Below are positions 46,227-63,995 of a stretch of 64,000 bases of DNA, piece after piece (position 1 is the first letter of the stretch; every line of letters starts with the position of its first letter). The position numbers and the translations under genes are program-made. The stretch is from Gammaproteobacteria bacterium (lineage in GTDB: Bacteria > Pseudomonadota > Gammaproteobacteria > Steroidobacterales > GCA-2729495), in contig CP054183.1 in NCBI GenBank assembly GCA_015709695.1, forward strand, positions 1,848,992 to 1,912,991, given 5' to 3'. Under the pieces are notes generated by a model. The model was not told the origin of the DNA. It made no database searches and worked only from the letters and a program-made list of their open reading frames with translations.

Positions 46227-46241
46227 GTCAATGTATTTGAC
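46227..46241. promoter_or_regulatory. Operator site A, GTCAA-N5-TTGAC
   Basis: GTCAATGTATTTGAC, perfect arms, centre TGTAT. In the divergent region of SDR1 (start 46168) and SDR2 (start 46293), so one site may control both operons. Confidence 0.7.
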
Positions 46242-46292
46242 TATCTGCCAGCAGCACTTCCGGCAGCACCACAACGGCAGCAAGGGGACAGG

Positions 46293-47204
46293 ATGGGCGG
46301 CAGCGTGACCCAGGCGGCCGGCGCACTGCGCTTTGACGGGCGCACCGTGGTGGTGACCGGCGCCGGCTCCGGGCTCGGCAGGGCCTATGCCCTGGAATTC
46401 GCGCAACGCGGTGCGAACGTCCTCGTCAACGATCCCGGCGTGGCTGCAGACGGCACCCGCAGCGCCATCGCCGTGGCGGATTCCATCACCGTCCGGGGTG
46501 GACGGGCCGTGGCCAATACCGACTCGGTGCTCGACGGCGGGCACATCATCGCGGCGGCGATGGATGCCTTCGGCAGCGTCGACGTGCTCATCAACAACGC
46601 CGGCATCATCCGCGACCGCAGCTTCGGCAAGATGACCGAGGACGACTGGCGGGCCGTCAATGACGTGCACCTGACCGGCGCCTGGCGCATCACCCGGGCG
46701 GCATGGCCGCACATGACCGGGAGGCAGTTCGGGCGCATCCTGTTCATCGCCTCGGCGGCCGGCCTCTACGGCAACTTCGGCCAGGCCAACTACGCTGCCG
46801 CCAAGCTCGGCCTCGTCGGCATGATGCGCACGCTGGCGCGGGAAGGCGCGGCGAAGAACCTGCTGAGCAATGCGGTGGCGCCGCTGGCCGCCACGCCTTT
46901 CACCAGCGGCGTCATGCCCGCGGAACTCGCCGCGAAGCTGCAGCCGGGGCAGGTGGTGCCGCTGCTGGTCGTGCTGGCCCACGAGGACTGCCGCGAGAAC
47001 GGCGCGCTGTTCGAGGCGGGCGGCGGCTGGTTTGCCGGCCTGCGCTGGCAGAGGAGCCGCGGCCTGCGGCTGGACGCCGGCGACGCACTCACTGCCGAGG
47101 CGGTCCTCGCCCGCTGGGGCGAGGTGACCGGCTTCGACACCGATGCCGACTACCCGCAGGCTGTCGAGGATTCGCTGCGCCGGGCGCTGGGAGCCAGGGC
47201 ATGA
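46293..47204 (+). CDS. SDR oxidoreductase 2, MFE-2/17beta-HSD4-type 3-hydroxyacyl-CoA dehydrogenase
   Basis: 303 residues. RTVVVTGAGSGLGRAYALEF, a long NDPGVAADG insertion, VDVLINNAGIIRDRSFGKMT, DDWRAVNDVHLTGAWRITRA, FGQANYAAAKLGLVGMMRTL and NAVAPLAATPFTSGVMPAEL match the dehydrogenase part of multifunctional enzyme 2. In other organisms this domain is joined to a MaoC hydratase; here a separate MaoC gene is at 59591. It oxidises (3R)-hydroxyacyl-CoA with NAD. The first gene of a plus-strand operon with ATGA overlaps. Confidence 0.9.
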   Translation: MGGSVTQAAGALRFDGRTVVVTGAGSGLGRAYALEFAQRGANVLVNDPGVAADGTRSAIAVADSITVRGGRAVANTDSVLDGGHIIAAAMDAFGSVDVLINNAGIIRDRSFGKMTEDDWRAVNDVHLTGAWRITRAAWPHMTGRQFGRILFIASAAGLYGNFGQANYAAAKLGLVGMMRTLAREGAAKNLLSNAVAPLAATPFTSGVMPAELAAKLQPGQVVPLLVVLAHEDCRENGALFEAGGGWFAGLRWQRSRGLRLDAGDALTAEAVLARWGEVTGFDTDADYPQAVEDSLRRALGARA

Positions 47205-47998
47205 GCGCGCAGCGGCAGCTCGCGCTCGAGCGCGACGGCGCCGTCGCCGTACTGCTGCTCGACCGCCCGGAGGCGCTGAATGCCTTCACGCGGCAGCTGC
47301 GCGGGGAACTCGGCGAGGCGCTCCACCGCCTTGCCGGCGACGAGGCGATCCGCGCCGTGGTGCTGGGCGGCCGTGGCCGTGCCTTCTGCGCCGGAGCGGA
47401 TCTCAAGGAAGCCGGCTCGGGGAATGTCGAGCGCGAGCTGCTCGAGGAATACCTGCCCTGCTTCGAGGCGATCGCCGCGATGGACAAGCCGGTGATCGCC
47501 GCCGTCGCCGGCCCGGCCTCGGGGGTGGGCATGTCGCTCGCCCTGCACTGCGATCTGCTGCTGATGGCCGAGGACGCCTACCTCAGCGCCGCCTTCAGCC
47601 GCATCGGCCTGGTGCCCGACGGCGGCGCCAGCTGGCTGCTGGTCCGCCAGCTGGGATATCGGCGCGCGCTGCAGCTGGCGCTGGAGTCCGAGCGCATCCC
47701 GGCCGCTCGTGCACTGGAACTGGGACTCGCCAACCGGGTGGTTCCGGCGGCGGAGCTGATGGCGGAGGCCGTGCGCTGGGCGGGCCGGCTGGCTGCCCTG
47801 TCGCCCGCGGCCGTGGCGGGCACCAAGCGCCTCATGCGCCTGGCGGCCCAGGCCGGTTTCGACGAGGTCTTCCGCCGCGAGGCGGTGCTCCAGGAAGCAT
47901 GCGGGGCGAGCGCATACTTCCGCGAGCGCCTGGAGGAATTCCGCAACAAGCGTCCTGCCACGAAGTCGGTGGCGGGCAAGGATGGGGAGCGACGATGA
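47201..47998 (+). CDS. Enoyl-CoA hydratase/isomerase family protein
   Basis: 265 residues. Crotonase fold: VLLLDRPEALNAFTRQLRGE, VLGGRGRAFCAGADLKE (oxyanion hole), AAVAGPASGVGMSLALHCDL and FSRIGLVPDGGASWLLVRQL with the second glutamate-equivalent replaced by aspartate (PDGG). It lacks the classical second Glu, so it may be an isomerase-like or other crotonase. Starts on the stop of SDR2 and ends on the start of ACAD1. Confidence 0.9.
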   Translation: MSAQRQLALERDGAVAVLLLDRPEALNAFTRQLRGELGEALHRLAGDEAIRAVVLGGRGRAFCAGADLKEAGSGNVERELLEEYLPCFEAIAAMDKPVIAAVAGPASGVGMSLALHCDLLLMAEDAYLSAAFSRIGLVPDGGASWLLVRQLGYRRALQLALESERIPAARALELGLANRVVPAAELMAEAVRWAGRLAALSPAAVAGTKRLMRLAAQAGFDEVFRREAVLQEACGASAYFRERLEEFRNKRPATKSVAGKDGERR

Positions 47999-49179
47999 GA
48001 CAGGGACACTTCGACGACGACCACGAGATCTTCCGCGAAGCCACGCGCCGCTTCTTCTGCAACGAGATCGCCCCGCATGCCGAGGCCTGGCGCGCACAGG
48101 GCCAGGTCGACCGCGAGGTCTACCGCAAGGCCGGCGAGCAGGGACTGCTGTGCATGTTCCTCGATCCCGCCTACGGCGGCGCCGGCGTGGAGGACTTCCG
48201 TTACGAGCAGATCGTCATGGAGGAAAACTTCCGCCATGGCGATGCCGGGCTGTTCCTGCACTTGCACAGCCGGCTGGTGGCGCCCTACATCGCCGTGCTC
48301 GGCACCGAGGAACAGAAGCAGCGCTTCCTGCCTGCCTGTGTCCGCGGCGAGACCATCCTCGGCATCGCCATGACCGAGACCGGCGCGGGCAGCGACCTCG
48401 CCGGCATGCGCTGCCGCGCCGAGGATCGTGGCGACCACTACCTGCTGAACGGCCAGAAGACCTACATCTCCAACGGCATCATCGGCGACCTGTTCGTCGT
48501 GGCGGCGCGCACCGACCCGACCGTGCCGCGGCAGATCGGCCTGTTCCTGGTCGAGCGCGGCATGGAAGGCTTCTCGCGCGGGCGCCGGCTGAAGAAGATG
48601 GGGCTCGATGCCCAGGATACGGCCGAGCTGTTCTTCGACAACGTGCGGGTGCCGAAGGCCAACGTGCTCGGCGACCCGAAGCGCGGCTTCTACTACCTCA
48701 TGCAGTTCCTCGCCGAGGAACGCCTGCTCGGCGCCTGCACCTACGTCGCCAATGCCCAGGTGGCCTTCGACATCACCTTCGACTTCATCCGCGAACGCCG
48801 CATGTTCGGCCAGACGGTGGCCGACTTCCAGGTCAACCGCTTCAAGATGGCCGACATGCGCACCGAGCTGGATGTCGCCCAGGTGTTCGTCGATACCTGC
48901 GTGCGGCGCCACAACGCCGGCCAGCTCACGGCCGACATGGCCGCGCGCGCCAAACTGTTCGCCAGCGAGGTCGAGGGGCGCGTGCTCGACGAGTGCGTGC
49001 AGCTGCACGGCGGGGCCGGCTACATGGAGGAGTACCCGATCTCGCGCATGTACCGCAACGCGCGCGTCTCGCGCATCTTCGCCGGCTCCTCGGAGGTGAT
49101 GCGCGAGATCATCGCCCGGTCGATCGGCCTCGACCCGCGGAAGAAATCCGCAGGTCCGGGCGGCGGCAAGGCGTCATGA
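47995..49179 (+). CDS. Acyl-CoA dehydrogenase 1
   Basis: 394 residues. TETGAGSDLAGMRCRAEDRG, GQKTYISNGIIGDLFVVAAR, MGLDAQDTAELFFDNVRVPK, RRMFGQTVADFQVNRFKMAD and VQLHGGAGYMEEYPISRMYR followed by FAGSSEVMREII. The usual YEGT glutamate is alanine (FAGS), as in isovaleryl-CoA-type dehydrogenases, so the base lies elsewhere. Long-chain or branched-chain acyl-CoA is plausible. Overlaps neighbours on both sides by 4 bp. Confidence 0.93.
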   Translation: MRQGHFDDDHEIFREATRRFFCNEIAPHAEAWRAQGQVDREVYRKAGEQGLLCMFLDPAYGGAGVEDFRYEQIVMEENFRHGDAGLFLHLHSRLVAPYIAVLGTEEQKQRFLPACVRGETILGIAMTETGAGSDLAGMRCRAEDRGDHYLLNGQKTYISNGIIGDLFVVAARTDPTVPRQIGLFLVERGMEGFSRGRRLKKMGLDAQDTAELFFDNVRVPKANVLGDPKRGFYYLMQFLAEERLLGACTYVANAQVAFDITFDFIRERRMFGQTVADFQVNRFKMADMRTELDVAQVFVDTCVRRHNAGQLTADMAARAKLFASEVEGRVLDECVQLHGGAGYMEEYPISRMYRNARVSRIFAGSSEVMREIIARSIGLDPRKKSAGPGGGKAS

Positions 49180-50336
49180 GCCAGGGTCCGCTCGCCGGGC
49201 TGCGCATCATCGAGGTGGCCGGCCTCGGTCCCGGGCCGTTCTGCGGCATGATGCTCGGCGACATGGGTGCCGAGGTGCTGCGCATCGATCGCCCGGGCAC
49301 CAGCGCACAGCAGCGTCTAGACCCCCTGTGCCGCAATCGTCGTTCGCTGCTGCTGGATCTCAAATCCCCGCGCGGGGTCGACGTGCTGCTGCGGCTGGCA
49401 GCCGGCGCCGACGCGCTCTTCGAGGGCTTCCGCCCGGGCGTCGCGGAGAGGCTGGGCTTCGGCCCGGAGGACTGCTTCGCGCGCAATCCGCGGCTGGTCT
49501 ATGGGCGCGTCACCGGCTGGGGCCAGGATGGGCCGCTGGCATCCGCTGCGGGCCACGACATCAACTACATCGCGCTGGCGGGGGCCCTCGCCGGCATCGG
49601 CCAGCCCGGTGGTCCGCCGGTGCCGCCGCTGAACCTCGTCGGCGACTTCGGCGGCGGTGGCATGCTGCTCGCCTTCGGCCTGGTCTGCGCACTGCTGGAG
49701 GCGCGCCGCACGGGGAAGGGACAGGTGGTGGACGCGGCGATGATCGATGGCAGCAATGCCCTCATGGCCACCTTCCACGGCATGCGGGCGATGGGCCTGT
49801 ACGACGACCGCCCGGGGACCGGCTTCCTCTCCGGTGCCGCGCACTACTACGGTACCTACGAGACCCGCGACGGCAAGTACGTGGCCATCGGCCCGCTGGA
49901 GCCGCAGTTCTATGCCCTGCTGATCGAGAAGGCCGGCCTCGATCCGGCGCGCTTCGCCGCATGCGGCTTTCGCATGGAATCGGGCCAGGCCAGCCGGGAG
50001 AACTGGCAGGCATTGCGGGCGGAACTGGCGGCAGTCTTCCGCAGCCGTACCCGCGAAGAATGGTGCGCTCTGCTCGAAGGCACGGACGCCTGCTTCGCAC
50101 CGGTGCTGACCGGGCCGGAAGCGGCGCGCCATCCGCACCATGTCGCACGCCAGTCGTTCATCGAGGTCGGCGGCGTGCTGCAGCACGCGCCGGCACCGCG
50201 TTTCAGCCGCACGCCGCCCGGCACTCCGCAGTCCCCACCCCTGCCGGGCAGCGACTCGCGCGACGTGCTGTCCGGAGCGGGCTTCGCTGCCGCGGAGATC
50301 GATGAGCTCGCCCGGGCCGGCGTGATCGGCGGCTGA
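49176..50336 (+). CDS. CaiB/BaiF family III CoA transferase, alpha-methylacyl-CoA racemase-like
   Basis: 386 residues. LAGLRIIEVAGLGPGPFCGM, MLGDMGAEVLRIDRPGT, RRSLLLDLKSPRGVDVLLRL, ARNPRLVYGRVTGWGQDGPL, GHDINYIALAGALAGIGQPG and GGGGMLLAFGLVCALLEARR. GHDINYIALAG is the signature of alpha-methylacyl-CoA racemase rather than of formyl- or succinyl-CoA transferases. Racemisation of 2-methyl groups is needed before beta-oxidation of branched isoprenoid or sterol side chains. Member of the SDR2 operon. Confidence 0.9.
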   Translation: MSQGPLAGLRIIEVAGLGPGPFCGMMLGDMGAEVLRIDRPGTSAQQRLDPLCRNRRSLLLDLKSPRGVDVLLRLAAGADALFEGFRPGVAERLGFGPEDCFARNPRLVYGRVTGWGQDGPLASAAGHDINYIALAGALAGIGQPGGPPVPPLNLVGDFGGGGMLLAFGLVCALLEARRTGKGQVVDAAMIDGSNALMATFHGMRAMGLYDDRPGTGFLSGAAHYYGTYETRDGKYVAIGPLEPQFYALLIEKAGLDPARFAACGFRMESGQASRENWQALRAELAAVFRSRTREEWCALLEGTDACFAPVLTGPEAARHPHHVARQSFIEVGGVLQHAPAPRFSRTPPGTPQSPPLPGSDSRDVLSGAGFAAAEIDELARAGVIGG

Positions 50337-50369
50337 GGCGGTCCCCACTTCACAGCCAACGAGAAGACC

Positions 50370-51566
50370 GTGAACAAACCCGACTGGAAGGACCTGCGCC
50401 GCCGCGTGCTGCGCTTCGTCGAGGATCGCGTCTATCCGGCCGAGACGGAACTGGACCAGGGCACGCGCACCCAGCGCAACCTCGTCATGGCCCGGCTCAT
50501 CGAGGAAGCCAAGGCGGCGGGCCTCTGGGCCCTCGGCCACCCGCGGGAGATCGGCGGCCAGGGCATGCCCTTCCTCGACTATGTGCACGTGAACGAGGTG
50601 ATCGGCCGCTCCTTCCATGCCATGCAGGCACTGGGCACGCTGTCGCTGCAGGACTCGCTCATGTTGCATCGCCACGCGGCCCCGCAGTGGCGCGAGCGCT
50701 ACCTGGCCCCGCTGGTCGCGGGCGAGATCATCCCGAGCTTCGCAATGACCGAGCCGGACGTCGCCAGCTCCGATCCGACCCAGCTTCAGACCACCGCCAG
50801 GCTGGAGAACGGGCAGTGGGTGATCAACGGGCGCAAGTGGTTCACCACCGGCGCCGGGGATGCGGAGTACACCACGGTCATGTGCCGGACGGAGACCGAT
50901 GGCCCGCGCCACGAGTGCTTCAGCATGATCATCGTGCCGACCAGCACGCGGGGCTACCGGATCGTGCGCGAGACGCCACTGCTCGGCATCGCAGGGGGCC
51001 ACTGGGAGGTCGTCTACGACGACGTGCGCGTCCCGCAGGAGAACCTGCTCGGCCCGCGCGGCAAGGGCTTCAGCATCGCCCAGCAGCGCCTGGGACCGGG
51101 GCGGATCTTCCACTGCATGCGCTGGCTGGGGCAGGCGCAGCGGGCCTTCGACCTGATGTGCCGGCGGCTCAACGAGCGCATCGCCTTCGGCGAGCCCCTC
51201 GCCCACAAGCAGCTGATGCAGAGTCATGTATTCGAGAGCGCGGCGGAGATCCAGGCCTGCCGCATGCTGACTCTCGACGCCGCCCGGCAGCTCGACGCCG
51301 GCCTGGAAGCGCGCGAGATGATCGGCACCATCAAGGTGGTGGGCGCGCGCATGCTCCACAACGTCATCGACCGGGCGATCCAGGTGCACGGCGCGCTCGG
51401 CCTCACCGACGACACGCCGCTCAGCCGGATGTACCGGCATGCCCGCGAGGCGCGCATCTACGACGGCCCCGACGAGGTCCACATCCAGTCCGTGGCGCGA
51501 CGCTACCTGAAGCAGTACCGGGCCGGCGGGCCGGGGGTCGACTTCGGCGATGCCGACGGCGGCTGA
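50370..51566 (+). CDS. Acyl-CoA dehydrogenase 2, ACAD10/11 or LvaC-like
   Basis: 398 residues from GTG 50370 (GAGAAG upstream). MTEPDVASSDPTQLQTTARL, NGRKWFTTGAGDAEYTTVMC, HWEVVYDDVRVPQENLLGPR, GPGRIFHCMRWLGQAQRAFD and AREARIYDGPDEVHIQSVAR. The DGPDEVH C-terminal motif is that of ACAD10/11, whose kinase domain resembles the neighbour at 44384. In P. putida, LvaC has the same partner kinase. So this enzyme may remove phosphate from a 4-phosphoacyl-CoA rather than simply dehydrogenate (inference). Confidence 0.9.
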   Translation: MNKPDWKDLRRRVLRFVEDRVYPAETELDQGTRTQRNLVMARLIEEAKAAGLWALGHPREIGGQGMPFLDYVHVNEVIGRSFHAMQALGTLSLQDSLMLHRHAAPQWRERYLAPLVAGEIIPSFAMTEPDVASSDPTQLQTTARLENGQWVINGRKWFTTGAGDAEYTTVMCRTETDGPRHECFSMIIVPTSTRGYRIVRETPLLGIAGGHWEVVYDDVRVPQENLLGPRGKGFSIAQQRLGPGRIFHCMRWLGQAQRAFDLMCRRLNERIAFGEPLAHKQLMQSHVFESAAEIQACRMLTLDAARQLDAGLEAREMIGTIKVVGARMLHNVIDRAIQVHGALGLTDDTPLSRMYRHAREARIYDGPDEVHIQSVARRYLKQYRAGGPGVDFGDADGG

Positions 51567-51587: not shown

Positions 51588-51602
51588 GTCAACCATATTG
51601 AC
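51588..51602. promoter_or_regulatory. Operator site B, GTCAA-N5-TTGAC
   Basis: GTCAACCATATTGAC, perfect arms. Twenty-two bp after the ACAD2 stop and 95 bp before the VOC gene, so it marks a separate promoter for VOC. Confidence 0.7.
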
Positions 51603-51696: not shown

Positions 51697-52302
51697 ATGA
51701 GCAACGCAGCCCAGACAGCCAGCACTGGCGCCCTCGCGCCGATCAGCAGCATCCATCACGCGGCCTACCGTTGCCGCGACGCCGAGCAGACCCGGTGGTT
51801 CTACGAGGATGTCCTCGGCCTGCCGCTGGTGGCGGCGATCATCAACGAGAAAGTCGCCGGCCTGGAGAAGGACATTCCCTACCTGCACCTGTTCTTCGCC
51901 CTCGCCGACGGCAACACCATCGCCTTCTTCGACGAGCCGGACGGCGCCTCCGAGGGGCAGTTCCAGCGCACCGCGGGCTTCGACCGCCACGTGGCTTTCC
52001 TGGTGAACACCGAGAAGGAGCTGCTCGAGTGGCAGAAGCGCATCAACGCGGCCGGCGTCAGCTGCCACGGGCCGGTGGACCACGGCATCGTCCGCTCGAT
52101 CTACATGTACGATCCCAACGGCCTGCAGACCGAAATCTGCCTGCGGGCACCGGGTTATGACGCAGCCATGGCCGAGCAGAAGAAGGTCGCCGGCGAGAAC
52201 ATCCGCAAGTGGAATGCCCGCACACGCGCCACCAAGGAGGCCAAGTTCGGAGCGGCCGCCCTCGACCGGCGTACCGCACAGCCCTCCACCAGGAAGAAAT
52301 AG
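51697..52302 (+). CDS. VOC-superfamily (glyoxalase/dioxygenase fold) protein
   Basis: 201 residues with GAGGGAG upstream. ISSIHHAAYRCRDAEQTRWF, YEDVLGLPLVAAIINEKVAG, YLHLFFALADGNTIAFFDEP, FDRHVAFLVNTEKELLEWQK and MYDPNGLQTEICLRAPGYD. The H near residue 20, second H in DRHVAF and the E of TEICL fit a metal site. Probably a dioxygenase or isomerase for the regulon substrate; the activity is not decided. Followed by a good terminator. Confidence 0.85.
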   Translation: MSNAAQTASTGALAPISSIHHAAYRCRDAEQTRWFYEDVLGLPLVAAIINEKVAGLEKDIPYLHLFFALADGNTIAFFDEPDGASEGQFQRTAGFDRHVAFLVNTEKELLEWQKRINAAGVSCHGPVDHGIVRSIYMYDPNGLQTEICLRAPGYDAAMAEQKKVAGENIRKWNARTRATKEAKFGAAALDRRTAQPSTRKK

Positions 52303-52595: not shown

Positions 52596-53102
52596 ATGCC
52601 GGTACCTGACAAGTCGTTGATGAGGGGATTGCTGCACGCCTTCTACTGGTGCGACGAAGGCCTGCAGAAGAGCCTGGCCGCCGATGGCTGGCCGTCGCTG
52701 TCCCGCACCCAGTCGATGATCATGGTGAACCTGTCCGATGGCATCACGCGGCCGTCGGACCTCGCCCGTGCCATTGGCGTCAGCCGGCAGGCAGTCCAGC
52801 GCACCCTCGTGGAAATGGAACGTGACGGCCTGGTGAGACTGGTGCCCGATCCGGCCGACGGGCGTGCCAAGATCGTCGAGCCCAGCAAGGACGGCAAGGG
52901 CATCTACACCGCAGCCTTGCGCACCATCGCCGCCATGGAAGCGGAACTCGAGCGACGGCTGGGCAAGAAGGCCATCAGCGACCTGCACCGGATGCTCTAC
53001 GCCGACTGGGGGCCGGTCATCGTCACCACCCGCGCCAGGCGCTCATCACGGCCACCGACCCCGCGGATCAGGACCTCGCGCTGGCGCAAGAGCAATCTCT
53101 GA
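52596..53102 (+). CDS. MarR-family transcriptional regulator
   Basis: 168 residues. SLSRTQSMIMVNLSDGITRP, DLARAIGVSRQAVQRTLVEM (recognition helix) and LVRLVPDPADGRAKIVEPS (wing). C-terminal dimer helices (KGIYTAALRTIAAMEAELER). The tail RARRSSRPPTPRIRTSRWRK is arginine-rich and may add DNA contacts. It is the only regulator inside the catabolic island and is flanked by operator-bearing genes, so it is the best local candidate to bind GTCAA-N5-TTGAC, but its own promoter has no such site. Confidence 0.85.
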   Translation: MPVPDKSLMRGLLHAFYWCDEGLQKSLAADGWPSLSRTQSMIMVNLSDGITRPSDLARAIGVSRQAVQRTLVEMERDGLVRLVPDPADGRAKIVEPSKDGKGIYTAALRTIAAMEAELERRLGKKAISDLHRMLYADWGPVIVTTRARRSSRPPTPRIRTSRWRKSNL

Positions 53103-53121: not shown

Positions 53122-54156
53122 TCAGTAGGCTGCCAGGTCCTCGCCGAGATCGACCGGCCCCTGGTAGTGCTTGCGGATGCCGGCGATGATCGCGTCGCGG
53201 TCGATCGCCTCCACCCCCGGGGCCGTGCCGAAGTGCGTGAGCACCACGCGCTTCACGCCGGCAGCTGCGGCCAGGCGGCCGATGTTCTCGGGCGTCAGGT
53301 GTTCCTTCTCCATGTGGTCGATCAGCGGCTGCTGGTCGACCCCGGTGGCCGCCTTGCGTGCCTGCAGGCTGGCGATCACCGAATCCAGGTCGATCAGCTC
53401 GCTGACGAGGACGTCGGCACCCCGTGCCAGCTCCTCGACGGCCCGGCTCGGGCCGGTGTCGCCCGTGATCACGACCGAACGACCAGGCATGTCGAAGCGG
53501 TAGGAATAGGCACGATCGATGCCATGGTCCGTCCTGGGCATTTGCATCGTGCTGTAGTGGGAATTCTCGACGGCGCGCACGGTGATGGTGCCGTCGCGAT
53601 ACACCTCGCGTGCGGTCGTCACCTCCCAGTCGTGCCCGGAGAACACCGAGGCCATCTCCGGCAGTCCCGGGATCTGCAGCCGATAGATCACTTCCCCGGT
53701 CTTCAGCGCCTGCAGCGTGTCGTGGACCAGGGACTGCGTCCCCGGCGGTCCGTAGATTTCCACCGGCTTCTGGCGGCGATCGGTCCAGTCGAGGGCAAGG
53801 AAGCCCATGAGGCCGGCAGTGTGGTCCAGATGCAGGTGGGTGAAGAACACCGCATCCACGGCGCTGGGCTTCACGCCGGCCCGTACCATCTGGCGGGGCG
53901 TGCCCTCGCCGACGTCGATGAGATAGGCCCGGGTCCCGACCTGCAGCAGCGTGGCCGGCTGCGAACGCCCGATGCGGGCGATGGGGCCGCCGCCGGTGCC
54001 GAGCAGCACGATCCGGCTGGTCGCCGACGCGGGTGACCCCGCGGCAGGGGCGGGTTTCGCCCGGGAGTCCGCGGCCTGCGCCGCCAGCGCCCCGCCGGGA
54101 ATCATGAATACGGAGGCCAGAATCAGGCCAGCCAGCCGGGAGATGTTGCTGTTCAT
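53122..54156 (-). CDS. Exported metallo-beta-lactamase-fold hydrolase (RNase Z-like)
   Basis: 344 residues with a signal peptide to about 28. Metal motif FFTHLHLDHTAGLMGFLALD, further ITGDTGPSRAVEELARGADV (aspartate ligand) and VVLTHFGTAPGVEAI (histidine). Fold matches tRNase Z/arylsulfatase-like group; export excludes RNA work. Likely an esterase or sulfatase-like hydrolase on an external substrate. Downstream of the TonB receptor on the same strand, with a strong hairpin between. Confidence 0.87.
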   Translation of the reverse strand: MNSNISRLAGLILASVFMIPGGALAAQAADSRAKPAPAAGSPASATSRIVLLGTGGGPIARIGRSQPATLLQVGTRAYLIDVGEGTPRQMVRAGVKPSAVDAVFFTHLHLDHTAGLMGFLALDWTDRRQKPVEIYGPPGTQSLVHDTLQALKTGEVIYRLQIPGLPEMASVFSGHDWEVTTAREVYRDGTITVRAVENSHYSTMQMPRTDHGIDRAYSYRFDMPGRSVVITGDTGPSRAVEELARGADVLVSELIDLDSVIASLQARKAATGVDQQPLIDHMEKEHLTPENIGRLAAAAGVKRVVLTHFGTAPGVEAIDRDAIIAGIRKHYQGPVDLGEDLAAY

Positions 54157-54215
54157 CGATACCCCCCTGTGCAGCGACTGCGGGCAGTGCGCTGCGCATG
54201 CGTCCTTCTCGTGCA

Positions 54216-54246
54216 GACGCCGGCGGGAACCGGACCCGCCGGCGTC
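54216..54246 (-). terminator. Perfect 12-bp hairpin after the TonB receptor gene
   Basis: GACGCCGGCGGG (54216-54227) pairs with CCCGCCGGCGTC (54235-54246), 7-base loop. No T-run on the minus strand. It could end or stabilise the TonB receptor transcript before the hydrolase gene. Confidence 0.5.
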
Positions 54247-54260
54247 CATCATGCGCCTGA

Positions 54261-56566: not shown

Positions 56567-56581
56567 GTCAACCTACTTGAT
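56567..56581. promoter_or_regulatory. Operator site C, GTCAA-N5-TTGAt
   Basis: GTCAACCTACTTGAT, one mismatch to the perfect palindrome. Upstream of the TonB receptor (start 56462); the CoA ligase gene ends at 56611 on the same strand. Confidence 0.6.
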
Positions 56582-56610: not shown

Positions 56611-58122
56611 TCATTGATTGCAGACCCTGCCACTGCCCGACAGGTGCTCCGCCACCCGCGCCTTCTGCACCTTCCCCATCGAATTGCGGGGCAACTCGCT
56701 GGCGAAGGCAAACTGGCGCGGCACCTTGTACCCCGCCAGCCGCGACCTGCAGAACTCGAGCAACTGCCGGGTGTCCGGCGCCGGGTCGTCCACCACCAGC
56801 AGCGCACCGATGCGCTCGCCCCAGCGCTCGTCGGGCAGACCGACTACCGCGCATTCGCGTACCGCGGGATGCTCGAGCAGAACTCGCTCGACCTCCATGG
56901 TGTAGACGTTTTCGCCGCCGGTAATGATGACGTCCTTCTTGCGGTCGACGAGGCACAGGCGCCCGTCGGGCTGGAAGACGCCGATGTCGCCCGACATGAG
57001 GTAGCCCCGGTGGAAGGCTGCCGCGGTCGCCTCGGGGTTGCCGAGATAGCCGGCGAAGGGTACCGGCCCGCGCACGCCGATCTCGCCGGCCACGCCGACG
57101 CCGCAGGGTTCGCCATCCTCGCCGAACAGCGCCACGTCGGCGCCGAGCGCCGGCCAGCCGACACTGTTGGGCAGCAGGTCGTCGGCCTGCTTGACCTCGT
57201 AGGTGGCGAACGAGCCCTCGGTCCAGCCATACATCTCGGCAATCTTCGCCGCCGGGAACATCTGCATGATGGTGCGCAGCAGGCTGGCCGTCACCGGCGC
57301 ACCGGCACTGATCAGGTGGCGGGCGGCACCCATGGGCGGACGGCCGCGCTGCTCCCACTCGTCGGCCAGCATGCGCAGCATGGTCGGCACCAGGAAGGCG
57401 AAGCTGCAGTGCCGGTCGAGTTCATCGAGCGCCATGGCCGCGGAGAACTCCGGCATGATCCGCACCCGCGCGCCGATGGTCAGCCCCGCGAGGGCGAAGC
57501 CGGCGTAGGAGATGTGGAACATCGGACCCGCGATGAGCACGACATGCTCGCCAGAGAGGCCGAATGCCCAGCCCCAGCGGTAGTTGTTCATCGTGTAGTA
57601 ATCGTGGGTGTAGACCGCGCCCTTGGGAAAGCCGGTGGTGCCGGAGGTGTAGCCGACCACGCAGGGTTCGGCACCCGCATCACGGCGCCCGAGCTCGGGT
57701 CGCGCGGCATGCGCCGGGGTCGGCAGCGCTGCGGCATCGATGACCTCCAGCGGCAGGCCGCTGGCCGCCTGGCGCGCGATGCCGAGGAACTGCCCGGCGG
57801 TGAGCAGCAGCCGGCAGTCGGCATCGATGAGGATGTGGCGCATCTCCGGTGCCGTCAGCCGCCCGTTGAGGGGTACGGCGACGACACCGGCAATCTGGCA
57901 GGCGGCGAGCGCCAGGGCCGCGTCCGCGCCGTTCGGCAGCAACAGCGCCACCATGCGGCCGTGGCGGCCGGCAGCACAACCCGACACCGCGTCCGCCAGG
58001 CCGCGGATGCGACGCCAGACCTCGCCATAGGTCAGGGAAACGCCGCCGACCACCTCGATGGCGGTCCGCTCCGGAGAGGCAAAGCAGCGCAGGACGATGC
58101 TGTCGGCTATGCCCAGCAGCAT
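56611..58122 (-). CDS. Acyl-CoA synthetase 1 (AMP-binding)
   Basis: 503 residues from ATG 58122, 2 bp after the ketoacyl synthase stop. AMP-binding motif VGYTSGTTGFPKGAVYTHDY, YGWTEGSFATYEV, GDIGVFQPDGRLCLVDRKKD and the C-terminal lysine region ELPRNSMGKVQKARVAEHL. CoA ligase of medium or aryl/branched acids. Coupled to KAS and regulated by site D region. It activates the substrate before beta-oxidation. Confidence 0.92.
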   Translation of the reverse strand: MLLGIADSIVLRCFASPERTAIEVVGGVSLTYGEVWRRIRGLADAVSGCAAGRHGRMVALLLPNGADAALALAACQIAGVVAVPLNGRLTAPEMRHILIDADCRLLLTAGQFLGIARQAASGLPLEVIDAAALPTPAHAARPELGRRDAGAEPCVVGYTSGTTGFPKGAVYTHDYYTMNNYRWGWAFGLSGEHVVLIAGPMFHISYAGFALAGLTIGARVRIMPEFSAAMALDELDRHCSFAFLVPTMLRMLADEWEQRGRPPMGAARHLISAGAPVTASLLRTIMQMFPAAKIAEMYGWTEGSFATYEVKQADDLLPNSVGWPALGADVALFGEDGEPCGVGVAGEIGVRGPVPFAGYLGNPEATAAAFHRGYLMSGDIGVFQPDGRLCLVDRKKDVIITGGENVYTMEVERVLLEHPAVRECAVVGLPDERWGERIGALLVVDDPAPDTRQLLEFCRSRLAGYKVPRQFAFASELPRNSMGKVQKARVAEHLSGSGRVCNQ

Positions 58123-58124
58123 GG

Positions 58125-59438
58125 TCAGCCCTGCCGAGTGGCGGAGCGTGGGCCGGGCGGCGCACGGCTGACCAGCAGCGCCGAGTTCTGGCCGCCGAAA
58201 CCGAAGGCATTGATGCCGACCACCGCGACCGGCATCTCTCGCGGCTGCCCGAGCACGACATCGAAGCCGATCTCGGTGTCGAGCCGCGAGGTGTTGGCCG
58301 TGTGCACCACGCGGCCCTCGCCCATCGCCAGCAGCGCGGCGACCAGCGACAGCCCGCCCGAGGCCGCCGCGGCATGGCCGAAATGGCCCTTGATGGAAGT
58401 GACGGCAAGAGGCCTGCGCCGCCCGCCGTAGACGCTGTTGATGGCGCGGATCTCCGGCGTGTCTCCGACCGGCGTACCGGTGGCGTGCGCATAGAGCGCA
58501 TCGACCTCCGCCGGCGCCAGCTGCGCATCCTCCAGCGCGAGGCGCATGGCCTGCGCCTCCCAGCGGCCCGTGGGCTCGGGCGCCGAGGGATGGAAGGCGT
58601 CGGCGAGAGAGCCGTAGCCGCGCACGTAGCCGAATATGCGCGCACCCCGCTGCGCGGCGAGGTCGGCGCGCTCCAGCACGAAGGCCGCGGAGCCTTCGCT
58701 GGTGACGATGCCCGAGCGTTCGGCGTCGAAGGGCATGCAGGCACGTCGCGGGTCCGCCGAAGGCGACTGCATGCCGAACATGGCCGGGGCATAGACCATG
58801 GCGGGGACGAACCCGCCGTCGGCGCCGCCGGAGACGAGACTGTGGCCGGCCTCGGTGCCGCCGACGATGGCGGCATCGGCGCGGCCGCCGGCGATGAGGC
58901 CGCTGGCGATGCCGAGGGCGTCGATGCTCGATGCGCAGGCGGTGGAGACGGTGAGGCTGGGCCCATGCAGGCCGTGCAGCATGGTGATCTGCGCCGCGCC
59001 CATGTTGCTGAGCGCCTTCATCATCGTCTTGCGCGGGAAGGCGGCCGGCCCCCGCAAATCGATCTCGTGCTGGGCGCGCATCAGCGACTGCACGCCGGAC
59101 ATGCTCGTGCCCTGGACCACCGCGGTGCGCAACGGATCGGGCTGCAGACCCGACTGGCGCAGGGCCTGTGTGGCGGCGGCGATGGTCCACTGGGCCAGCA
59201 CGTCGGTGCCGCTGCAGACCTTCTCGTCCATCCAGGCGCCGGGGTCGAAGTCCCTGACCATGGACCACCAGACGCTGCGCCCTGCGGGGTCCCCTGGCAG
59301 GGGCACGGCCTCGATCACCAGCCTGTCGTCCAGAAGCCCGCGGTAGAACACCCCGGGATCGCAACCATACGCGGACACCACGCCCATGCCGGTGATGGCC
59401 ACCGCCGGTCGCGCGCTGCCTGTGCCGGAATCCGCCAT
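58125..59438 (-). CDS. Beta-ketoacyl-ACP synthase family protein (FabF-like)
   Basis: 437 residues. Catalytic triad: C168 in VSTACASSIDALG, histidine in HATGTPVGDTPEIRAINS and histidine in SIKGHFGHAAAASGGLS. GINAFGFGGQNSALLV ends it. Complete active site. No acyl carrier protein, malonyl transferase or fatty-acid-synthase gene is present, so it sits in a catabolic cluster. It may catalyse condensation on CoA thioesters or release in a thiolase-like way. First gene of the minus operon, with site D upstream. Confidence 0.9.
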   Translation of the reverse strand: MADSGTGSARPAVAITGMGVVSAYGCDPGVFYRGLLDDRLVIEAVPLPGDPAGRSVWWSMVRDFDPGAWMDEKVCSGTDVLAQWTIAAATQALRQSGLQPDPLRTAVVQGTSMSGVQSLMRAQHEIDLRGPAAFPRKTMMKALSNMGAAQITMLHGLHGPSLTVSTACASSIDALGIASGLIAGGRADAAIVGGTEAGHSLVSGGADGGFVPAMVYAPAMFGMQSPSADPRRACMPFDAERSGIVTSEGSAAFVLERADLAAQRGARIFGYVRGYGSLADAFHPSAPEPTGRWEAQAMRLALEDAQLAPAEVDALYAHATGTPVGDTPEIRAINSVYGGRRRPLAVTSIKGHFGHAAAASGGLSLVAALLAMGEGRVVHTANTSRLDTEIGFDVVLGQPREMPVAVVGINAFGFGGQNSALLVSRAPPGPRSATRQG

Positions 59439-59512: not shown

Positions 59513-59527
59513 GTCAATTTCGTTTAC
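59513..59527. promoter_or_regulatory. Operator site D, GTCAA-N5-TTtAC
   Basis: GTCAATTTCGTTTAC, one mismatch; the outer bases extend the dyad, GCTTGT against ACAAGC. Between the divergent ketoacyl synthase (59438) and MaoC (59591) starts. Confidence 0.6.
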
Positions 59528-59590: not shown

Positions 59591-60070
59591 TTGCCGATCC
59601 TCGTCAGCACCGCCGGGCTCGCCGCGTATGTCGGCCGACGGCTGGTCGCCGAGAACTGGTTCGAGATCGACCAGGCACGGATCGACCGCTTCGCGGAAGT
59701 CACCGGCGACCACCAGTTCATCCACGTCGATCCCGTCGCTGCACGCGCCACGCCCTTCGGCTCGACCATTGCCCACGGCTACCTGACGCTGTCGCTGCTG
59801 CCGCTGCTGCTCGAGCCCATCCAGTTGCAGCCCGAAGGCGTCAGCTGGGGCCTCAACTACGGCCTCGACCGCTTGCGCTTCCTGGCGCCGGTGCCGGCGG
59901 GTGCCGCGGTGCGCGCCGTGTCCACGCTGCTGGCCGTGGAGAACAAGGGCGGCGGCCGGCTGCTGATGCGCTCGGAGGTGGCCGTGGAGATCCGCGGCTC
60001 GGACCGCCCGGCGCTGGCGGCTACCACGCTGGCGATGTGGGTCCTCGGGGCGGCGCCCGCGGCCGGATGA
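59591..60070 (+). CDS. MaoC-like enoyl-CoA hydratase 2
   Basis: 159 residues. TTG start at 59591 because GGGAGG lies 6 bp upstream and the homology begins there; the longer frame would cover site D. FIHVDPVAARATPFGSTIAH followed by GYLTLSLLP is the hydratase 2 motif (catalytic D and H). It forms (3R)-hydroxyacyl-CoA, the right product for SDR2. 4 bp before the QOR gene. Confidence 0.92.
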   Translation: MPILVSTAGLAAYVGRRLVAENWFEIDQARIDRFAEVTGDHQFIHVDPVAARATPFGSTIAHGYLTLSLLPLLLEPIQLQPEGVSWGLNYGLDRLRFLAPVPAGAAVRAVSTLLAVENKGGGRLLMRSEVAVEIRGSDRPALAATTLAMWVLGAAPAAG

Positions 60071-60074
60071 CACC

Positions 60075-61088
60075 ATGGCTGCGGGCATGAGGGCCATGCT
60101 CTGCCGCCGGCTCGGCCCGCCCGGGGTCCTGGAGCCCGGCACCGTGCCGCTGCCTCAGGCCGCGACCGGCCAGGTACGCATCCAGGTCGAGGCCTGCGGC
60201 ATCAACTTTCCCGACCTGCTGCTGGTCGCCGGCAAGTACCAGGAGCGGCCGGCCCTGCCCTTCATTCCCGGGGGCGAGGTCGCCGGCGTCATCGATCAGC
60301 TGGGCGCCGGTGTCACCGGCCTCGCGCTGGGCCAGCCGGTGATGGCGGCGACGTTTCTCGGCGGACTGGCCGAGTACGCCGTGGCACGGGCCCGCGACGT
60401 CGACCCGCGCCCCGCCAGCCTCTCGCCCGAGGCGGCCGCCGCCTTCCCGGGTGCCTACGGCACGGCGTATCACGCCCTCGTGCAACGCGGCCGCCTGCAG
60501 CCCGGCGAGACCCTGCTGGTGCTCGGTGCCGCCGGTGGCACCGGCACTGCCGCCGTGCAGATCGGCAAGGCACTCGGCGCGCGGGTCCTGGCCGCGGCCG
60601 GCAGCGAGCGGAAGCTCGACTTCCTGCGCGCGCAGGGCGCCGACGCCGTCATCGATTACCGCGACGGCGCACTGCGCGATGCGGTGAAGGGCCTGACAGG
60701 CGGACGCGGGGCGGACGTGATATTCGACCCTGTCGGTGGCGAGGCCTTCGACCAGGCGAGCCGCTGCCTCGCCTGGAACGGGCGCCTGCTGGTGATCGGC
60801 TTCGCCAGCGGCACCATCCCGCGCTTCCCGGTCAATCTCGCCCTGCTGAAAGGCTACGCGGTCGTCGGCGTGTACTACGGCCGCTTTCGCGACGAGCAAC
60901 CCGCGGAGGCGGCCGCCAACATGCGCGCGCTGCGCGCCCTGCTCGACGCCGGTCGCCTCGCGCCACCGATCCACCAGGTCTTCCCGCTGGAACAGGCAGC
61001 CCTCGCCCTCGCCTGCCTGCAGGAGCGCAACGTCGAGGGCAAGGTCGTCGTCAGCCTGCGTGGCAGTACCCCAACCAGCGCGGCCTGA
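60075..61088 (+). CDS. NADPH:quinone oxidoreductase-like zinc-independent MDR protein
   Basis: 337 residues. GINFPDLLLVAGKYQERPAL near the start, IPGGEVAGVIDQLGAGVTGL, GLAEYAVARARDVDPRPASL, VLGAAGGTGTAAVQIGKALG (NADP motif), and IFDPVGGEAFDQASRCLAWN. No structural zinc cysteines. Family includes quinone reductases, enoyl-reductases and crotonyl-CoA reductases; role in the pathway could be enoyl-thioester reduction. Second gene after MaoC. Confidence 0.9.
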   Translation: MAAGMRAMLCRRLGPPGVLEPGTVPLPQAATGQVRIQVEACGINFPDLLLVAGKYQERPALPFIPGGEVAGVIDQLGAGVTGLALGQPVMAATFLGGLAEYAVARARDVDPRPASLSPEAAAAFPGAYGTAYHALVQRGRLQPGETLLVLGAAGGTGTAAVQIGKALGARVLAAAGSERKLDFLRAQGADAVIDYRDGALRDAVKGLTGGRGADVIFDPVGGEAFDQASRCLAWNGRLLVIGFASGTIPRFPVNLALLKGYAVVGVYYGRFRDEQPAEAAANMRALRALLDAGRLAPPIHQVFPLEQAALALACLQERNVEGKVVVSLRGSTPTSAA

Positions 61089-61099
61089 GGCCAGCAGGC

Positions 61100-62662
61100 C
61101 TACACCTGGCGGGGCCGCGAATCCCAGTAGGCCGCCCGCAGTTCGCGCTTCAGGATCTTGTTGGCACCGCTCAGCGGAAACGGCTCGCTGCGGAAATCGA
61201 CGCTGCGGATGCACTTGTAGGCAGCCAGTTGCCTGCGGCAGTGGGCGATGAGTTCGACGCCGCTTGCGCTGCATCCCTCGCGCAGGCGCACCACGGCATG
61301 CACCCGTTCTCCCCAGCGCTCGTCGGGAATGCCGAACACGGCGCACTCCGCGACCGCGGGATGGGAATACAGCGCATTCTCGACTTCCTGGCTGTAGACG
61401 TTCTCGCCACCCGTGATGATCATGTCCTTGATCCGATCGACGATGTAGAGGAAGCCGTCGGCGTCGAGGTAACCGGCATCGCCGGTGTGGAGCCAGCCGC
61501 CGCGCTGGGCCTTGGCGGTTTCCTCCGGCAGGTTCCAGTAGCCGGGTGACACGGTGAGCCCGCGCACGCAGATCTCGCCGACCGCGCCGGCAGGCAGCAC
61601 GGCCTCGTCGTGGTCGAGGATGACCACCTCGGTGCCGGTGATCGGCTGGCCGGCAGAGCCCAGCTTGCTGCTGCCATCCACGGCGATACGGTGGTCCCGG
61701 GGCTTCAGGATGCTGATGTTCGGCCCGCCCTCGGTCTGGCCGTAGACCTGGTACAGCAGGGTCTGCGGCATGACCGCGAGCGTACGCCGCAGCAGCGTTT
61801 CGGAAATCGGCGAGCCGCCATAGGAAATGCGGCGCAGGCTGGAGAGGTCGAAGTTCGCGATCTCGGGGTGGGCCACGATCGCATTGATCATCGTCGGCAC
61901 CAGGGCCGCCTTGGTCACCTGCTCGGCCTCGATCATCTGCAGAACGGCGCGTGGATCGAAGCGCGGCATCAGGCACAGGCCGGCGCCGAGGGCTGCCGCC
62001 GCGATGGCGTTCAGCCCGCCGACCAGGTGGAACATCGGCGCGACGACCAGCAGCACGTCATCGCGGCCGACACCGATCTCCAGGATCCACTGCAGCGTAT
62101 TGGTGATCATCCCCTGGTGAGTCAGCATCACGCCCTTCGAACGACCGGTCGTGCCACCGGTGTAATAGAGCGCGAACAGGTCGCTGCCGCCGCGCCCGGC
62201 GTCCGCCGCGGGTTCGCAGGCCGCGAGCAGCCCCGCCAGGCCCAGACAGTCTCCGGGGGTCTCGCTGGCGCCGCCGGCGTAGACCAGTTGCACGAGACCT
62301 GGCGCCAGGGCCTGCAACTGTCGCGCCGCGCGCAGGAAGCCATCGTCGACGATCAGCAGCCGGCTGCCGGAATCGGCCAGGCAGTGGGCGATCTCCTCGC
62401 CGGCGAGGCGGGTATTGATGGGTACCACCACGCCGCCTGCCCAGGGAATCGCGAACAGCAGCTGGACATAGAGTTCGCTGTTGGCGGCGAGGATCGCCAC
62501 GCGGTCGCCGGGCGCCAGCCCCAGCCGCTGCAGCGCGGACGCGAGGCGTTGCACGCGATCGAGGGTTTCCGCCCAGCTTGTCTGCCGGCCCTCGAAGCGC
62601 GTGGCGATGCCGTGGCGGTTGACCAGTGCGGCACGCCGGAGCATGTTGGCGAACGAGTACAT
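61100..62662 (-). CDS. Acyl-CoA synthetase 2 (AMP-binding)
   Basis: 520 residues. ALYYTGGTTGRSKGVMLTHQ, YQVYGQTEGGPNISILKPRD, LHTGDAGYLDADGFLYIVDR and DMIITGGENVYSQEVENAL. C-terminal FPLSGANKILKRELRAAYWD lysine present. Long-chain or phenylpropanoid-type acid ligase. It shares motif order with CoA synthetase 1 but is clearly a different subfamily. Follows the second MBL gene after 200 bp without a visible feature. Confidence 0.92.
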   Translation of the reverse strand: MYSFANMLRRAALVNRHGIATRFEGRQTSWAETLDRVQRLASALQRLGLAPGDRVAILAANSELYVQLLFAIPWAGGVVVPINTRLAGEEIAHCLADSGSRLLIVDDGFLRAARQLQALAPGLVQLVYAGGASETPGDCLGLAGLLAACEPAADAGRGGSDLFALYYTGGTTGRSKGVMLTHQGMITNTLQWILEIGVGRDDVLLVVAPMFHLVGGLNAIAAAALGAGLCLMPRFDPRAVLQMIEAEQVTKAALVPTMINAIVAHPEIANFDLSSLRRISYGGSPISETLLRRTLAVMPQTLLYQVYGQTEGGPNISILKPRDHRIAVDGSSKLGSAGQPITGTEVVILDHDEAVLPAGAVGEICVRGLTVSPGYWNLPEETAKAQRGGWLHTGDAGYLDADGFLYIVDRIKDMIITGGENVYSQEVENALYSHPAVAECAVFGIPDERWGERVHAVVRLREGCSASGVELIAHCRRQLAAYKCIRSVDFRSEPFPLSGANKILKRELRAAYWDSRPRQV

Positions 62663-62862
62663 GTGCTATGGATCCGTCCCGGCATCCGCGGGGCTGCCAG
62701 CGGATGATTGCCTTGCTGCAAGGCATCCCCGGACCATATATCCCTGCATCCCGTTCGTCCACCCGGGCGAGGCGACTGTCTGGCTGTGGAGCACGGCGGA
62801 GGGCCATGCGTTCCACCTGGCGCCGGCTGCGGCCTGGTCCAGACTGACCCGCCGCCGGGACC

Positions 62863-63942
62863 TCAGGGCCGGCGGAAGCGGAAGGTGCCGCCGGCGTCCC
62901 GCTCGCGCAGCAGCTGGCCGCCGCGATACAGATGGTTGAGGTGCGCGATCGCTTCGCTCATCGCGAAGTACAGCTGGTGCGCGTTGAGCCGGCGGCGGAA
63001 CAGCGACGCGAGGACATCGGCCGCGGTCTGCGGCTCCACGCAATGGCGCAACAGCAGTTCGAAGCGCTGCGCATGGTGGCCAGCGAGCGCCTCCAGGCGT
63101 GGCTGCAACCCCGTGAACGGCTGGCCGTGCGCCGGCAGCACCAGCGTCCCGGCCGGCAGCACGGCAAAACGCTGCAGCGAGGCCAGGTACTGGCGGATGG
63201 GATCGGCATCGGGCTCGACATGCCACACGCCGATGTGCGGGGTGATGGCAGGCAGCACGTGGTCGCCGGAGATCAGCAGCCCCAGTTCCGGACAATGCAG
63301 CGTGGCGTGGTCCGGTGAATGCCCCTGGCCGGTGATCACCCGCCAGTCCTGGCCGCCAATCCGGAGCACGGCGCCGTCATGCAGGGGCTTGAACCCGGCT
63401 GGCAGGCCGGAGATGGCACGCCGGTAGGTCCCGCCCCAGGCCTGCAGCGCCCCGAGGCGCTCGCCCTGCAGGCCATGGTGGCGGAAAAACGCCAGCCGGC
63501 TGCCGTCGCTGTCGAAGCTGTCGTCGGCGACGGCCTGCCCGGCCATGCGGAACTCCGGGGTCGTCATCCACAGCTCGCAGCCGAAACGCCCGACCAGCCA
63601 GGCAGCCAGACCGAAGTGGTCGGGGTGGTGATGCGTGACGATGAGGCGCCGGACCGGCCGGCCCGCCATCATGCCCGCGTGCAGCGTCTGCCAGAGTTCA
63701 CGGATCTGCGCGGTGTCGAGCCCGGTATCGACGATGGTCCAGCCATCGCCGTCCGCCAGCAGCCAGAGGTTGATATGGTTGAGGATGAACGGCAGCGGCA
63801 TCCGCAGCCAGTGGACTCCGTCGGCAACCGCCACCGATCCGCCCGGCTCAGGCAGGGTCGCATGCGGGTAGGCGATGGCGTCGGACGCCATGCTGCCGGT
63901 GGCTGTGTGCGTGCGGCCGTAGGCCATGGGTCTGGGGAGCAA
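62863..63942 (-). CDS. Metallo-beta-lactamase-fold hydrolase 2
   Basis: 359 residues in the longest reading; ATG at 63927 and 63891 are alternatives without clear ribosome sites. LRMPLPFILNHINLWLLADG, DGWTIVDTGLDTAQIRELWQ, LIVTHHHPDHFGLAAWLVGR (HxHxDH metal site), ITGQGHSPDHATLHCPELGL and LLISGDHVLPAITPHI. Glyoxalase II/thioesterase-like fold with a C-terminal extra domain. Likely acyl-CoA thioester or lactone hydrolase. Site E is upstream. Confidence 0.88.
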   Translation of the reverse strand: MLPRPMAYGRTHTATGSMASDAIAYPHATLPEPGGSVAVADGVHWLRMPLPFILNHINLWLLADGDGWTIVDTGLDTAQIRELWQTLHAGMMAGRPVRRLIVTHHHPDHFGLAAWLVGRFGCELWMTTPEFRMAGQAVADDSFDSDGSRLAFFRHHGLQGERLGALQAWGGTYRRAISGLPAGFKPLHDGAVLRIGGQDWRVITGQGHSPDHATLHCPELGLLISGDHVLPAITPHIGVWHVEPDADPIRQYLASLQRFAVLPAGTLVLPAHGQPFTGLQPRLEALAGHHAQRFELLLRHCVEPQTAADVLASLFRRRLNAHQLYFAMSEAIAHLNHLYRGGQLLRERDAGGTFRFRRP

Positions 63943-63980
63943 TCCGGCGACGCGTGGCCGCGCCCTGGTACGGCATTCTA

Positions 63981-63995
63981 GGCAATCATATTGAC
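63981..63995. promoter_or_regulatory. Operator site E, GgCAA-N5-TTGAC
   Basis: GGCAATCATATTGAC, one mismatch; 39 bp upstream of the longest reading of the MBL-fold gene. The next gene beyond the right edge is unseen. Confidence 0.6.

What the first reader, a model, noticed from the sequence alone, without database searches (positions are those of the whole stretch)
46227..63995. Five-site palindromic operator defines an acyl-CoA catabolic regulon
GTCAA-N5-TTGAC occurs at 46227, 51588, 56567, 59513 and 63981, each between genes and upstream of a catabolic operon or the TonB receptor (two perfect sites, three with one mismatch). I did not see it in the intergenic regions I checked outside the island. 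It ties uptake, CoA activation, beta-oxidation and hydrolases to one regulator. The MarR gene at 52596 is the local candidate but lacks a site of its own, so the regulator could lie outside.
Basis: partly seen in the sequence, partly recalled or inferred. Interest (0 to 1): 0.78.

Follow-up and report, generated by a model that had tools for sequence, protein, structure and literature searches.

The report
MarR repressor regulon for acyl-CoA catabolism
A short mirror-image DNA signal really does mark a block of fat-like-compound breakdown genes, and comparison with distant bacteria points to the small repressor protein encoded inside the block as the one that reads it; this is an uncharacterised but ordinary kind of bacterial gene switch.

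Summary
In the 3.1-Mb genome the perfect 15-mer occurs four times, all within 23 kb: window 46227 and 51588, plus two just past the window end (window-equivalents 64084, 69332). Relatives keep most sites in the same promoters. Homologs 38-48% identical occur in Phenylobacterium, Novosphingobium, Sphingopyxis, Hephaestia and Henriciella. In 25 such loci GTCAA-N5-TTGAC ranked first of all 5-base half-sites with spacers 0-12: 25 copies, all intergenic, in 19 loci, 0.04 expected. It lies within 400 bp upstream of the MarR gene in 14 of 27 loci (8 perfect). In the window the MarR gene sits behind site 51588, so autoregulation is plausible. Two further conserved sites lie 115-119 kb upstream of the window. 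The island holds an ACAD11-like acyl-CoA dehydrogenase, an APH-family kinase and a DUF6285 protein, suggesting 4-hydroxy(oxo)acyl-CoA or lactone breakdown. Binding and inducer are untested. Verdict: an apparently undescribed MarR regulon of a known kind.

The parts
46227..46241 (.). Operator 1 (perfect), between the divergent SDR1/APH/DUF6285 and SDR2-ECH-ACAD1-CaiB-ACAD2 genes
   Evidence: perfect at the same place in 6 of 6 cluster-bearing genomes
51588..51602 (.). Operator 2 (perfect), upstream of VOC and then MarR; right half TTGACA looks like a -35
   Evidence: perfect in 5 of 5 genomes with the ACAD2-VOC junction; G005, without VOC there, has a one-mismatch site before MarR
56567..56581 (.). 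Operator 3 (one mismatch), upstream of the TonB receptor gene
   Evidence: kept in G002; G004 has a perfect site in the region; G006 has none with N5 and at most one mismatch, only a GTCAA-N6-TTGAC; no TonB gene called at this place in G003
59513..59527 (.). Operator 4 (one mismatch), between KS/ACS1 and MaoC/QOR
   Evidence: one-mismatch site of the same type in G002 and G003
63981..63995 (.). Operator 5a (one mismatch), MBL2/thiolase intergenic region; a perfect partner 5b lies at window-equivalent 64084, beyond the window
   Evidence: 5a in G000, G002, G003, degenerate in G004 and G006; 5b perfect in G000, G002, G003, G004, G006
52596..53102 (+). MarR-family regulator (168 aa), proposed reader of all operators
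   Evidence: Pfam MarR_2 E 1.1e-11; AF2 model pLDDT 84.7, pTM 0.65, the 50 listed Foldseek matches include many named MarR-family regulators; conserved in the 6 cluster genomes
51697..52302 (+). VOC (glyoxalase-fold) protein; by my count a VOC gene directly flanks a site in 13 of 27 alphaproteobacterial or unclassified MarR loci
44004..44384 (-). DUF6285 protein (126 aa), LvaB-like by size and position only
44384..45373 (-). APH-family phosphotransferase, perhaps LvaA/ACAD11-kinase-like
   Evidence: weak
45377..46114 (-). Short-chain dehydrogenase SDR1
46293..47204 (+). Short-chain dehydrogenase SDR2
47201..47998 (+). Enoyl-CoA hydratase
47995..49179 (+). Acyl-CoA dehydrogenase ACAD1 (ordinary type)
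49176..50336 (+). Family III CoA-transferase (CaiB-like)
50370..51566 (+). Acyl-CoA dehydrogenase ACAD2, ACAD11-like
53122..54252 (-). Metallo-beta-lactamase-fold hydrolase MBL1
54261..56462 (-). TonB-dependent receptor
56611..58122 (-). Acyl-CoA synthetase ACS1
58125..59438 (-). Ketoacyl synthase (KS)
59591..60070 (+). MaoC-like hydratase
60096..61088 (+). Zinc-type oxidoreductase (QOR)
61100..62662 (-). Acyl-CoA synthetase ACS2
62863..63927 (-). Metallo-beta-lactamase-fold hydrolase MBL2

Best explanation
The 15-mer GTCAA-N5-TTGAC is the operator of the MarR-family protein encoded at 52596-53102. A MarR dimer most likely binds each site and represses the surrounding promoters, including the one behind which its own gene lies. 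When a pathway compound (perhaps an acyl-CoA made by ACS1 or ACS2) builds up, the dimer lets go, and uptake (TonB), CoA activation, beta-oxidation and hydrolase genes switch on together. Shown here: site positions, conservation, clustering of all perfect sites of this genome in the island, and association of the motif with this MarR subfamily in two proteobacterial classes. Inferred: binding, sign of regulation, autoregulation and inducer.
For: All 4 perfect genome matches lie in 23 kb. The same slots keep sites in relatives while much of the flanking spacer diverges. The MarR profile hits 6 of 40 family genomes searched, all in one genus, the same 6 of 10 genus genomes that carry ACAD2. Pfam names no other regulator among the 28 proteins scanned. 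Distant MarR homologs carry the motif nearby: 25 of 25 copies intergenic, 19 of 25 loci, top of the half-site/spacer enumeration; the runner-up reaches 7 loci and is in the same register. In 18 such genomes 20 of 67 perfect matches fall in the 0.35 Mb of MarR loci, out of about 76 Mb; the reversed control has 0 in those loci. A site with at most one mismatch lies within 400 bp upstream of the aligned MarR start in 14 of 27 loci, 8 of them perfect; one pair is a duplicate and one locus has no upstream sequence.
Against: No binding data. In G072 (L103) the MarR homolog is present but the genome has no perfect site and the locus none with one mismatch; L093 and the short L091 have none either, and L088 no intergenic one. 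The perfect motif is not enriched over whole genomes: 67 (three counted twice because contig ends repeat in G060) against 112 reversed-control matches in the 18 genomes. Many Phenylobacterium loci are close kin, so 25 loci are not 25 independent tests. The promoter scan found no consensus promoters in 45900-64000, so operator-promoter geometry is by eye. MarR and cluster are present or absent together in the genus, which does not by itself single out MarR. In G003-G006 a paralog, MarR-B, lies near part of the cluster and could read the same sites.
Confidence: 0.83

Rival explanations
1. A regulator encoded elsewhere (for example a TetR) binds the sites, and the MarR gene is only one of its targets.
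For: Adjacent genes are not always the regulator; in G000 no site with at most one mismatch lies directly before the MarR gene.
Against: It would have to recognise the same motif around this MarR subfamily in both Gamma- and Alphaproteobacteria. Pfam names no second regulator in the 28 scanned proteins of the island and its downstream flank.
Confidence: 0.09
2. The MarR protein binds the sites but acts mainly as an activator, or as both activator and repressor.
For: Some MarR proteins activate (PMC4737184, passage seen).
Against: Sites appear to overlap likely -35 elements or follow a likely -10 (by eye), which favours repression.
Confidence: 0.12
3. The palindrome is just two back-to-back -35 elements (TTGAC) of divergent promoters, with no dedicated regulator.
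For: TTGACA is the -35 consensus (recalled; also the scan's model); several sites lie between divergent genes.
Against: No other spacing of the GTCAA half-site appears among the 25 top patterns listed. Site 51588 lies between two genes of the same direction; at 46227 the forward -10-like box precedes the site.
Confidence: 0.03

Closest known systems
CouR of Rhodococcus jostii (MarR family; PMC4737184, abstract and passages seen)
   Same: MarR fold (6c2s and 5cyv among the Foldseek matches); inverted repeat with a 5-bp spacer overlapping the -35; one operator serving divergent promoters; several target operons; CoA-thioester catabolism.
   Different: The CouR box is cATTGA-N5-TCAATg, the half-sites facing the other way from GTCAA-N5-TTGAC; 17 and 22% identity in the two structural alignments; other pathway genes.
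lva operon of Pseudomonas putida (levulinate; PMC6692424 and PMC11342911, passages seen)
   Same: APH-family kinase next to a small protein, an ACAD11-type dehydrogenase, short-chain dehydrogenases and acyl-CoA synthetases.
   Different: lva has LvaR, described as a sigma54-dependent protein; here a MarR is proposed. Here the genes are spread over several operons with TonB, VOC, MBL and CoA-transferase genes. No Lva protein sequence was compared directly.
Saro_0803 of Novosphingobium aromaticivorans (MarR-like; PMC10046596, passages seen)
   Same: MarR-like regulator of a catabolic gene in an alphaproteobacterium.
   Different: Its promoter holds GCAATA------TATTGC, not GTCAA-N5-TTGAC.

Membership tests
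MarR family | Winged helix-turn-helix MarR domain | tested here: met
   Window protein: Pfam MarR_2 45.1 bits, cut-off 27; 5 of 8 members of A1 match at 1e-5; AF2 model and Foldseek matches to MarR-family structures
MarR family | Binds an inverted repeat as a dimer | not testable with these tools
   Association only
MarR family | Palindrome in the promoter of its own gene or operon (frequent, not universal) | tested here: met
   Site upstream of the homologous MarR gene in 14 of 27 loci, at most one mismatch; in the window only through the VOC-MarR arrangement, with 293 bp between VOC and MarR
CouR-type regulator | Operator ATTGA-N5-TCAAT | tested here: not met
   Half-sites face the opposite way
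Lva/ACAD11 4-hydroxyacyl-CoA module | ACAD11/LvaC-type acyl-CoA dehydrogenase | tested here: met
   Nearest by sequence only: best solved matches are ACAD11 at 258.5, 256.2 and 255.0 bits, then 240.7 for a putative ACAD (4hr3), then 180.9; LvaC itself not compared
Lva/ACAD11 4-hydroxyacyl-CoA module | LvaA-type acyl-CoA kinase | tested here: inconclusive
   APH family; ACAD11 is only the fourth-best solved match, E 8e-6 over a short stretch; the best, 9o56, is named aminoglycoside phosphotransferase
Lva/ACAD11 4-hydroxyacyl-CoA module | LvaB partner protein | tested here: inconclusive
   DUF6285 protein of similar size beside the kinase; no LvaB sequence compared
Lva/ACAD11 4-hydroxyacyl-CoA module | Sigma54-type LvaR regulator | tested here: not met
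   None among the 28 scanned proteins

The most novel reading that the evidence does not exclude
A MarR subfamily with its own operator code (GTCAA-N5-TTGAC) has spread between Alpha- and Gammaproteobacteria and, in this genus, controls a TonB-fed pathway built around an ACAD11/LvaC-type 4-hydroxyacyl-CoA step and a VOC enzyme of unknown reaction, sensing a pathway acyl-CoA.
Probability: 0.35. Interest if true: 0.6.

Novelty: new member of a known kind. Interest (0 to 1): 0.47.

Why it matters
It gives an apparently uncharacterised MarR subfamily a predicted operator, a predicted regulon and a testable substrate class, in genera from MAGs to named strains (Hephaestia caeni DSM 25527, Novosphingobium arvoryzae, Henriciella pelagia). 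The regulator-operator pairing could make it usable as a sensor once the inducer is known, and it ties a VOC enzyme of unknown reaction to acyl-CoA catabolism.

Tried and rejected
Rejected: a chance motif. An outside regulator as the favoured reader. A second MarR as the main regulator: MarR-B, 35-36% identical over alignment A1, lies near part of the cluster in G003, G004, G005 and G006, but the profile finds only one match each, MarR-A, in G000 and G002.

Led nowhere: consensus promoter scan (0 found, 1.0 expected) and terminator scan (2 found, 5.3 expected) over 45900-64000. Literature: the operator in six written forms, 0 papers; MarR with GTCAA/TTGAC/palindrome, 75 papers, 25 listed, listing only seen; MarR family with Novosphingobium/operator/repressor/VOC, 4 papers, of which passages of two were read (PheR is IclR-family); Phenylobacterium with MarR/regulon terms, 4 papers, listing only; MarR with CoA-thioester terms, 6 papers, passages of two read. 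The held library lacks most subscription journals, so this does not prove that the motif is unpublished. NCBIfam gave no model over its cut-off for the MarR, VOC or DUF6285 proteins. The substrate could not be settled: in L077 (a MAG labelled uncultured Alphaproteobacteria) the VOC site faces an APH/enolase/2-hydroxyacid-dehydrogenase operon, so the pathway seems to differ between lineages.
Full report
The motif. In the whole genome (one contig, 3,105,498 bases) the perfect 15-mer occurs 4 times, all within 1895218-1918337; the reversed control occurs twice. Two of the four lie past the window, at window-equivalents 64084 and 69332. With one mismatch allowed the pattern is not enriched genome-wide (58 against 77 control), so single-mismatch sites need other support. 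I placed 57 of the 58: the 4 perfect ones are intergenic; of 53 with one mismatch 41 are genic and 12 intergenic. Those 12 are three in the island, two distal (1729883, 1734097), one at window 13001 and six unexplained.

The island. Genes were called with my own hexamer caller and named by Pfam: DUF6285, APH kinase, SDR1 | site 46227 | SDR2, enoyl-CoA hydratase, ACAD1, CaiB-type CoA-transferase, ACAD2 | site 51588 | VOC, MarR, MBL1, TonB receptor | site 56567 | ACS1, ketoacyl synthase | site 59513 | MaoC, QOR, ACS2, MBL2 | sites 63981 and 64084 | thiolase, FadJ-like, flavodoxin-fold reductase, SDR3 | site 69332 | a DAP-dehydrogenase-like protein. MarR is the only regulator Pfam names among the 28 proteins scanned in those three calls.

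Relatives. Five same-genus genomes (G002-G006) carry the cluster, G005 in pieces. The 46227 slot is perfect in 6 of 6 genomes, the window's included. The 51588 slot is perfect in 5 of 5 with the ACAD2-VOC junction; G005 lacks VOC there and has a one-mismatch site before MarR. The 64084 slot is perfect in G000, G002, G003, G004 and G006; in G005 a perfect site (C69:30129) lies about 270 bp upstream of the thiolase ORF as called (which looks short), just outside the stretch I fetched. The 59513 slot has a one-mismatch site in G000, G002 and G003; no ketoacyl synthase gene was called in G004 or G006. Slot 69332 is perfect in G000 and G002, the two where both flanking genes were found. Site 63981 has one mismatch in G000, G002 and G003 and is degenerate in G004 and G006. 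The TonB slot is weaker: one mismatch in G000 and G002, a perfect site in G004, and in G006 only a GTCAA-N6-TTGAC. Alignments show several operators as islands of identity. Both distal sites have counterparts: 1734097 in G002 beside an 88%-identical synthetase (one mismatch there too), 1729883 in G003 beside an 80%-identical 174-aa protein (perfect there).

The regulator. The MarR profile hits 6 of 40 family genomes at E 1e-15 or better: G000 and G002-G006; ACAD2 hits the same 6 of 10 genus genomes at E 1e-100. A search of GTDB genomes gave 34 loci: four MarR-A orthologs, three MarR-B, and 27 with record titles of Alphaproteobacteria or unclassified Pseudomonadota. I tested 25 of those 27 (dropping L085, a duplicate of L083, and L100, overlapping L099). 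Counting every 5-base half-site with spacers 0-12, GTCAA-N5-TTGAC came first: 25 copies, all intergenic, 19 of 25 loci, 0.04 expected from base composition. The next best, CGTCA-N7-TGACG, reached 7 loci and is in the same register; the first unrelated patterns reached 6. In 18 of these genomes 20 of 67 perfect matches lie in the 352 kb of loci, where the reversed control has none; over the whole genomes the reversed control is commoner (112). A site with at most one mismatch lies within 400 bp upstream of the aligned MarR start in 14 of 27 loci, 8 of them perfect, seven at -89 to -91. By my count, a VOC gene directly flanks a site in 13 of the 27. Against: L103 has the MarR but no perfect site anywhere in its genome; L093 and the short L091 have none in their loci; L088 has no intergenic one. 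In A2 only L103 carries T in place of A in the RQA stretch of the putative recognition helix, which may or may not matter.

Mechanism. By eye, a box TGGAC(n)-N18-TAGCAT directly precedes sites 46227 and 64084 in G000, and TTGACA formed by the right half-site reads as a -35 for the VOC promoter and for the reverse promoter at 46227. The consensus scan found none of these, so they are weak candidates. They favour repression by occlusion. CouR gives a worked precedent: an inverted repeat with a 5-bp spacer over the -35, released by p-coumaroyl-CoA (PMC4737184, abstract and passages); its half-sites face the other way. A review calls induction by CoA-thioesters an emerging shared property of MarR proteins of lignin-derivative catabolism (PMC5487221, passages).

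Pathway. ACAD2's best solved relatives are ACAD11 (258.5 bits; 4hr3 at 240.7; the rest from 180.9 down). The APH protein matches the ACAD11 kinase part only weakly, as fourth-best solved hit. LvaA and LvaC, and ACAD10/11, phosphorylate 4-hydroxyacyl-CoA and then eliminate phosphate (PMC11342911, passages); LvaB is a 12-kDa LvaA partner (PMC6692424, passages). That DUF6285 corresponds to LvaB is my guess from size and position. A 4-hydroxy/4-oxo acid or lactone substrate is thus plausible, not shown. The VOC protein's best solved relative is 9u42, named only Glyoxalase.

Verdict. A real regulon; the local MarR as regulator is well supported by comparison, not by experiment. The regulon appears undescribed in the searches made, within a library that lacks many journals.

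Noticed in passing
L059:8884 and L059:13098 (genome 1729883, 1734097): Two intergenic one-mismatch sites with counterparts in G003 and G002, beside two 174-aa proteins, a thioesterase-like gene and an acyl-CoA synthetase 53% identical to ACS2: likely distal regulon members.
   Followed up: partly
L049:3697-4260, L052:11409-11954, L053:3774-4328, L119:9303-9863: A second MarR (MarR-B, about 34-36% identical to the window MarR) lies near part of the cluster in G003, G004, G006 and G005; in G003 it has a one-mismatch site upstream.
   Followed up: partly
window 50370-51566: ACAD2 is closest to ACAD11 among solved structures, a hint of 4-hydroxyacyl-CoA chemistry.
   Followed up: partly
L077:10514-16904: In an alphaproteobacterial MAG the VOC-side site faces an operon of APH kinase, enolase-like and 2-hydroxyacid dehydrogenase genes, with another MarR and a MetE-like gene nearby.
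   Followed up: no
genome 489116 (L012): One-mismatch site GTCAGGAAAATTGAC in a divergent intergenic region, unexplained.
   Followed up: no
L103:10001-10390: MarR homolog whose genome has no perfect site; its recognition stretch reads RQT where the other 26 rows of A2 read RQA.
   Followed up: partly
G006 TonB/QOR intergenic region (L053, between 10883-11875 and 12249-14435): A GTCAA-N6-TTGAC inverted repeat, a spacer-6 variant of the motif, where the other genomes have an N5 site.
   Followed up: no
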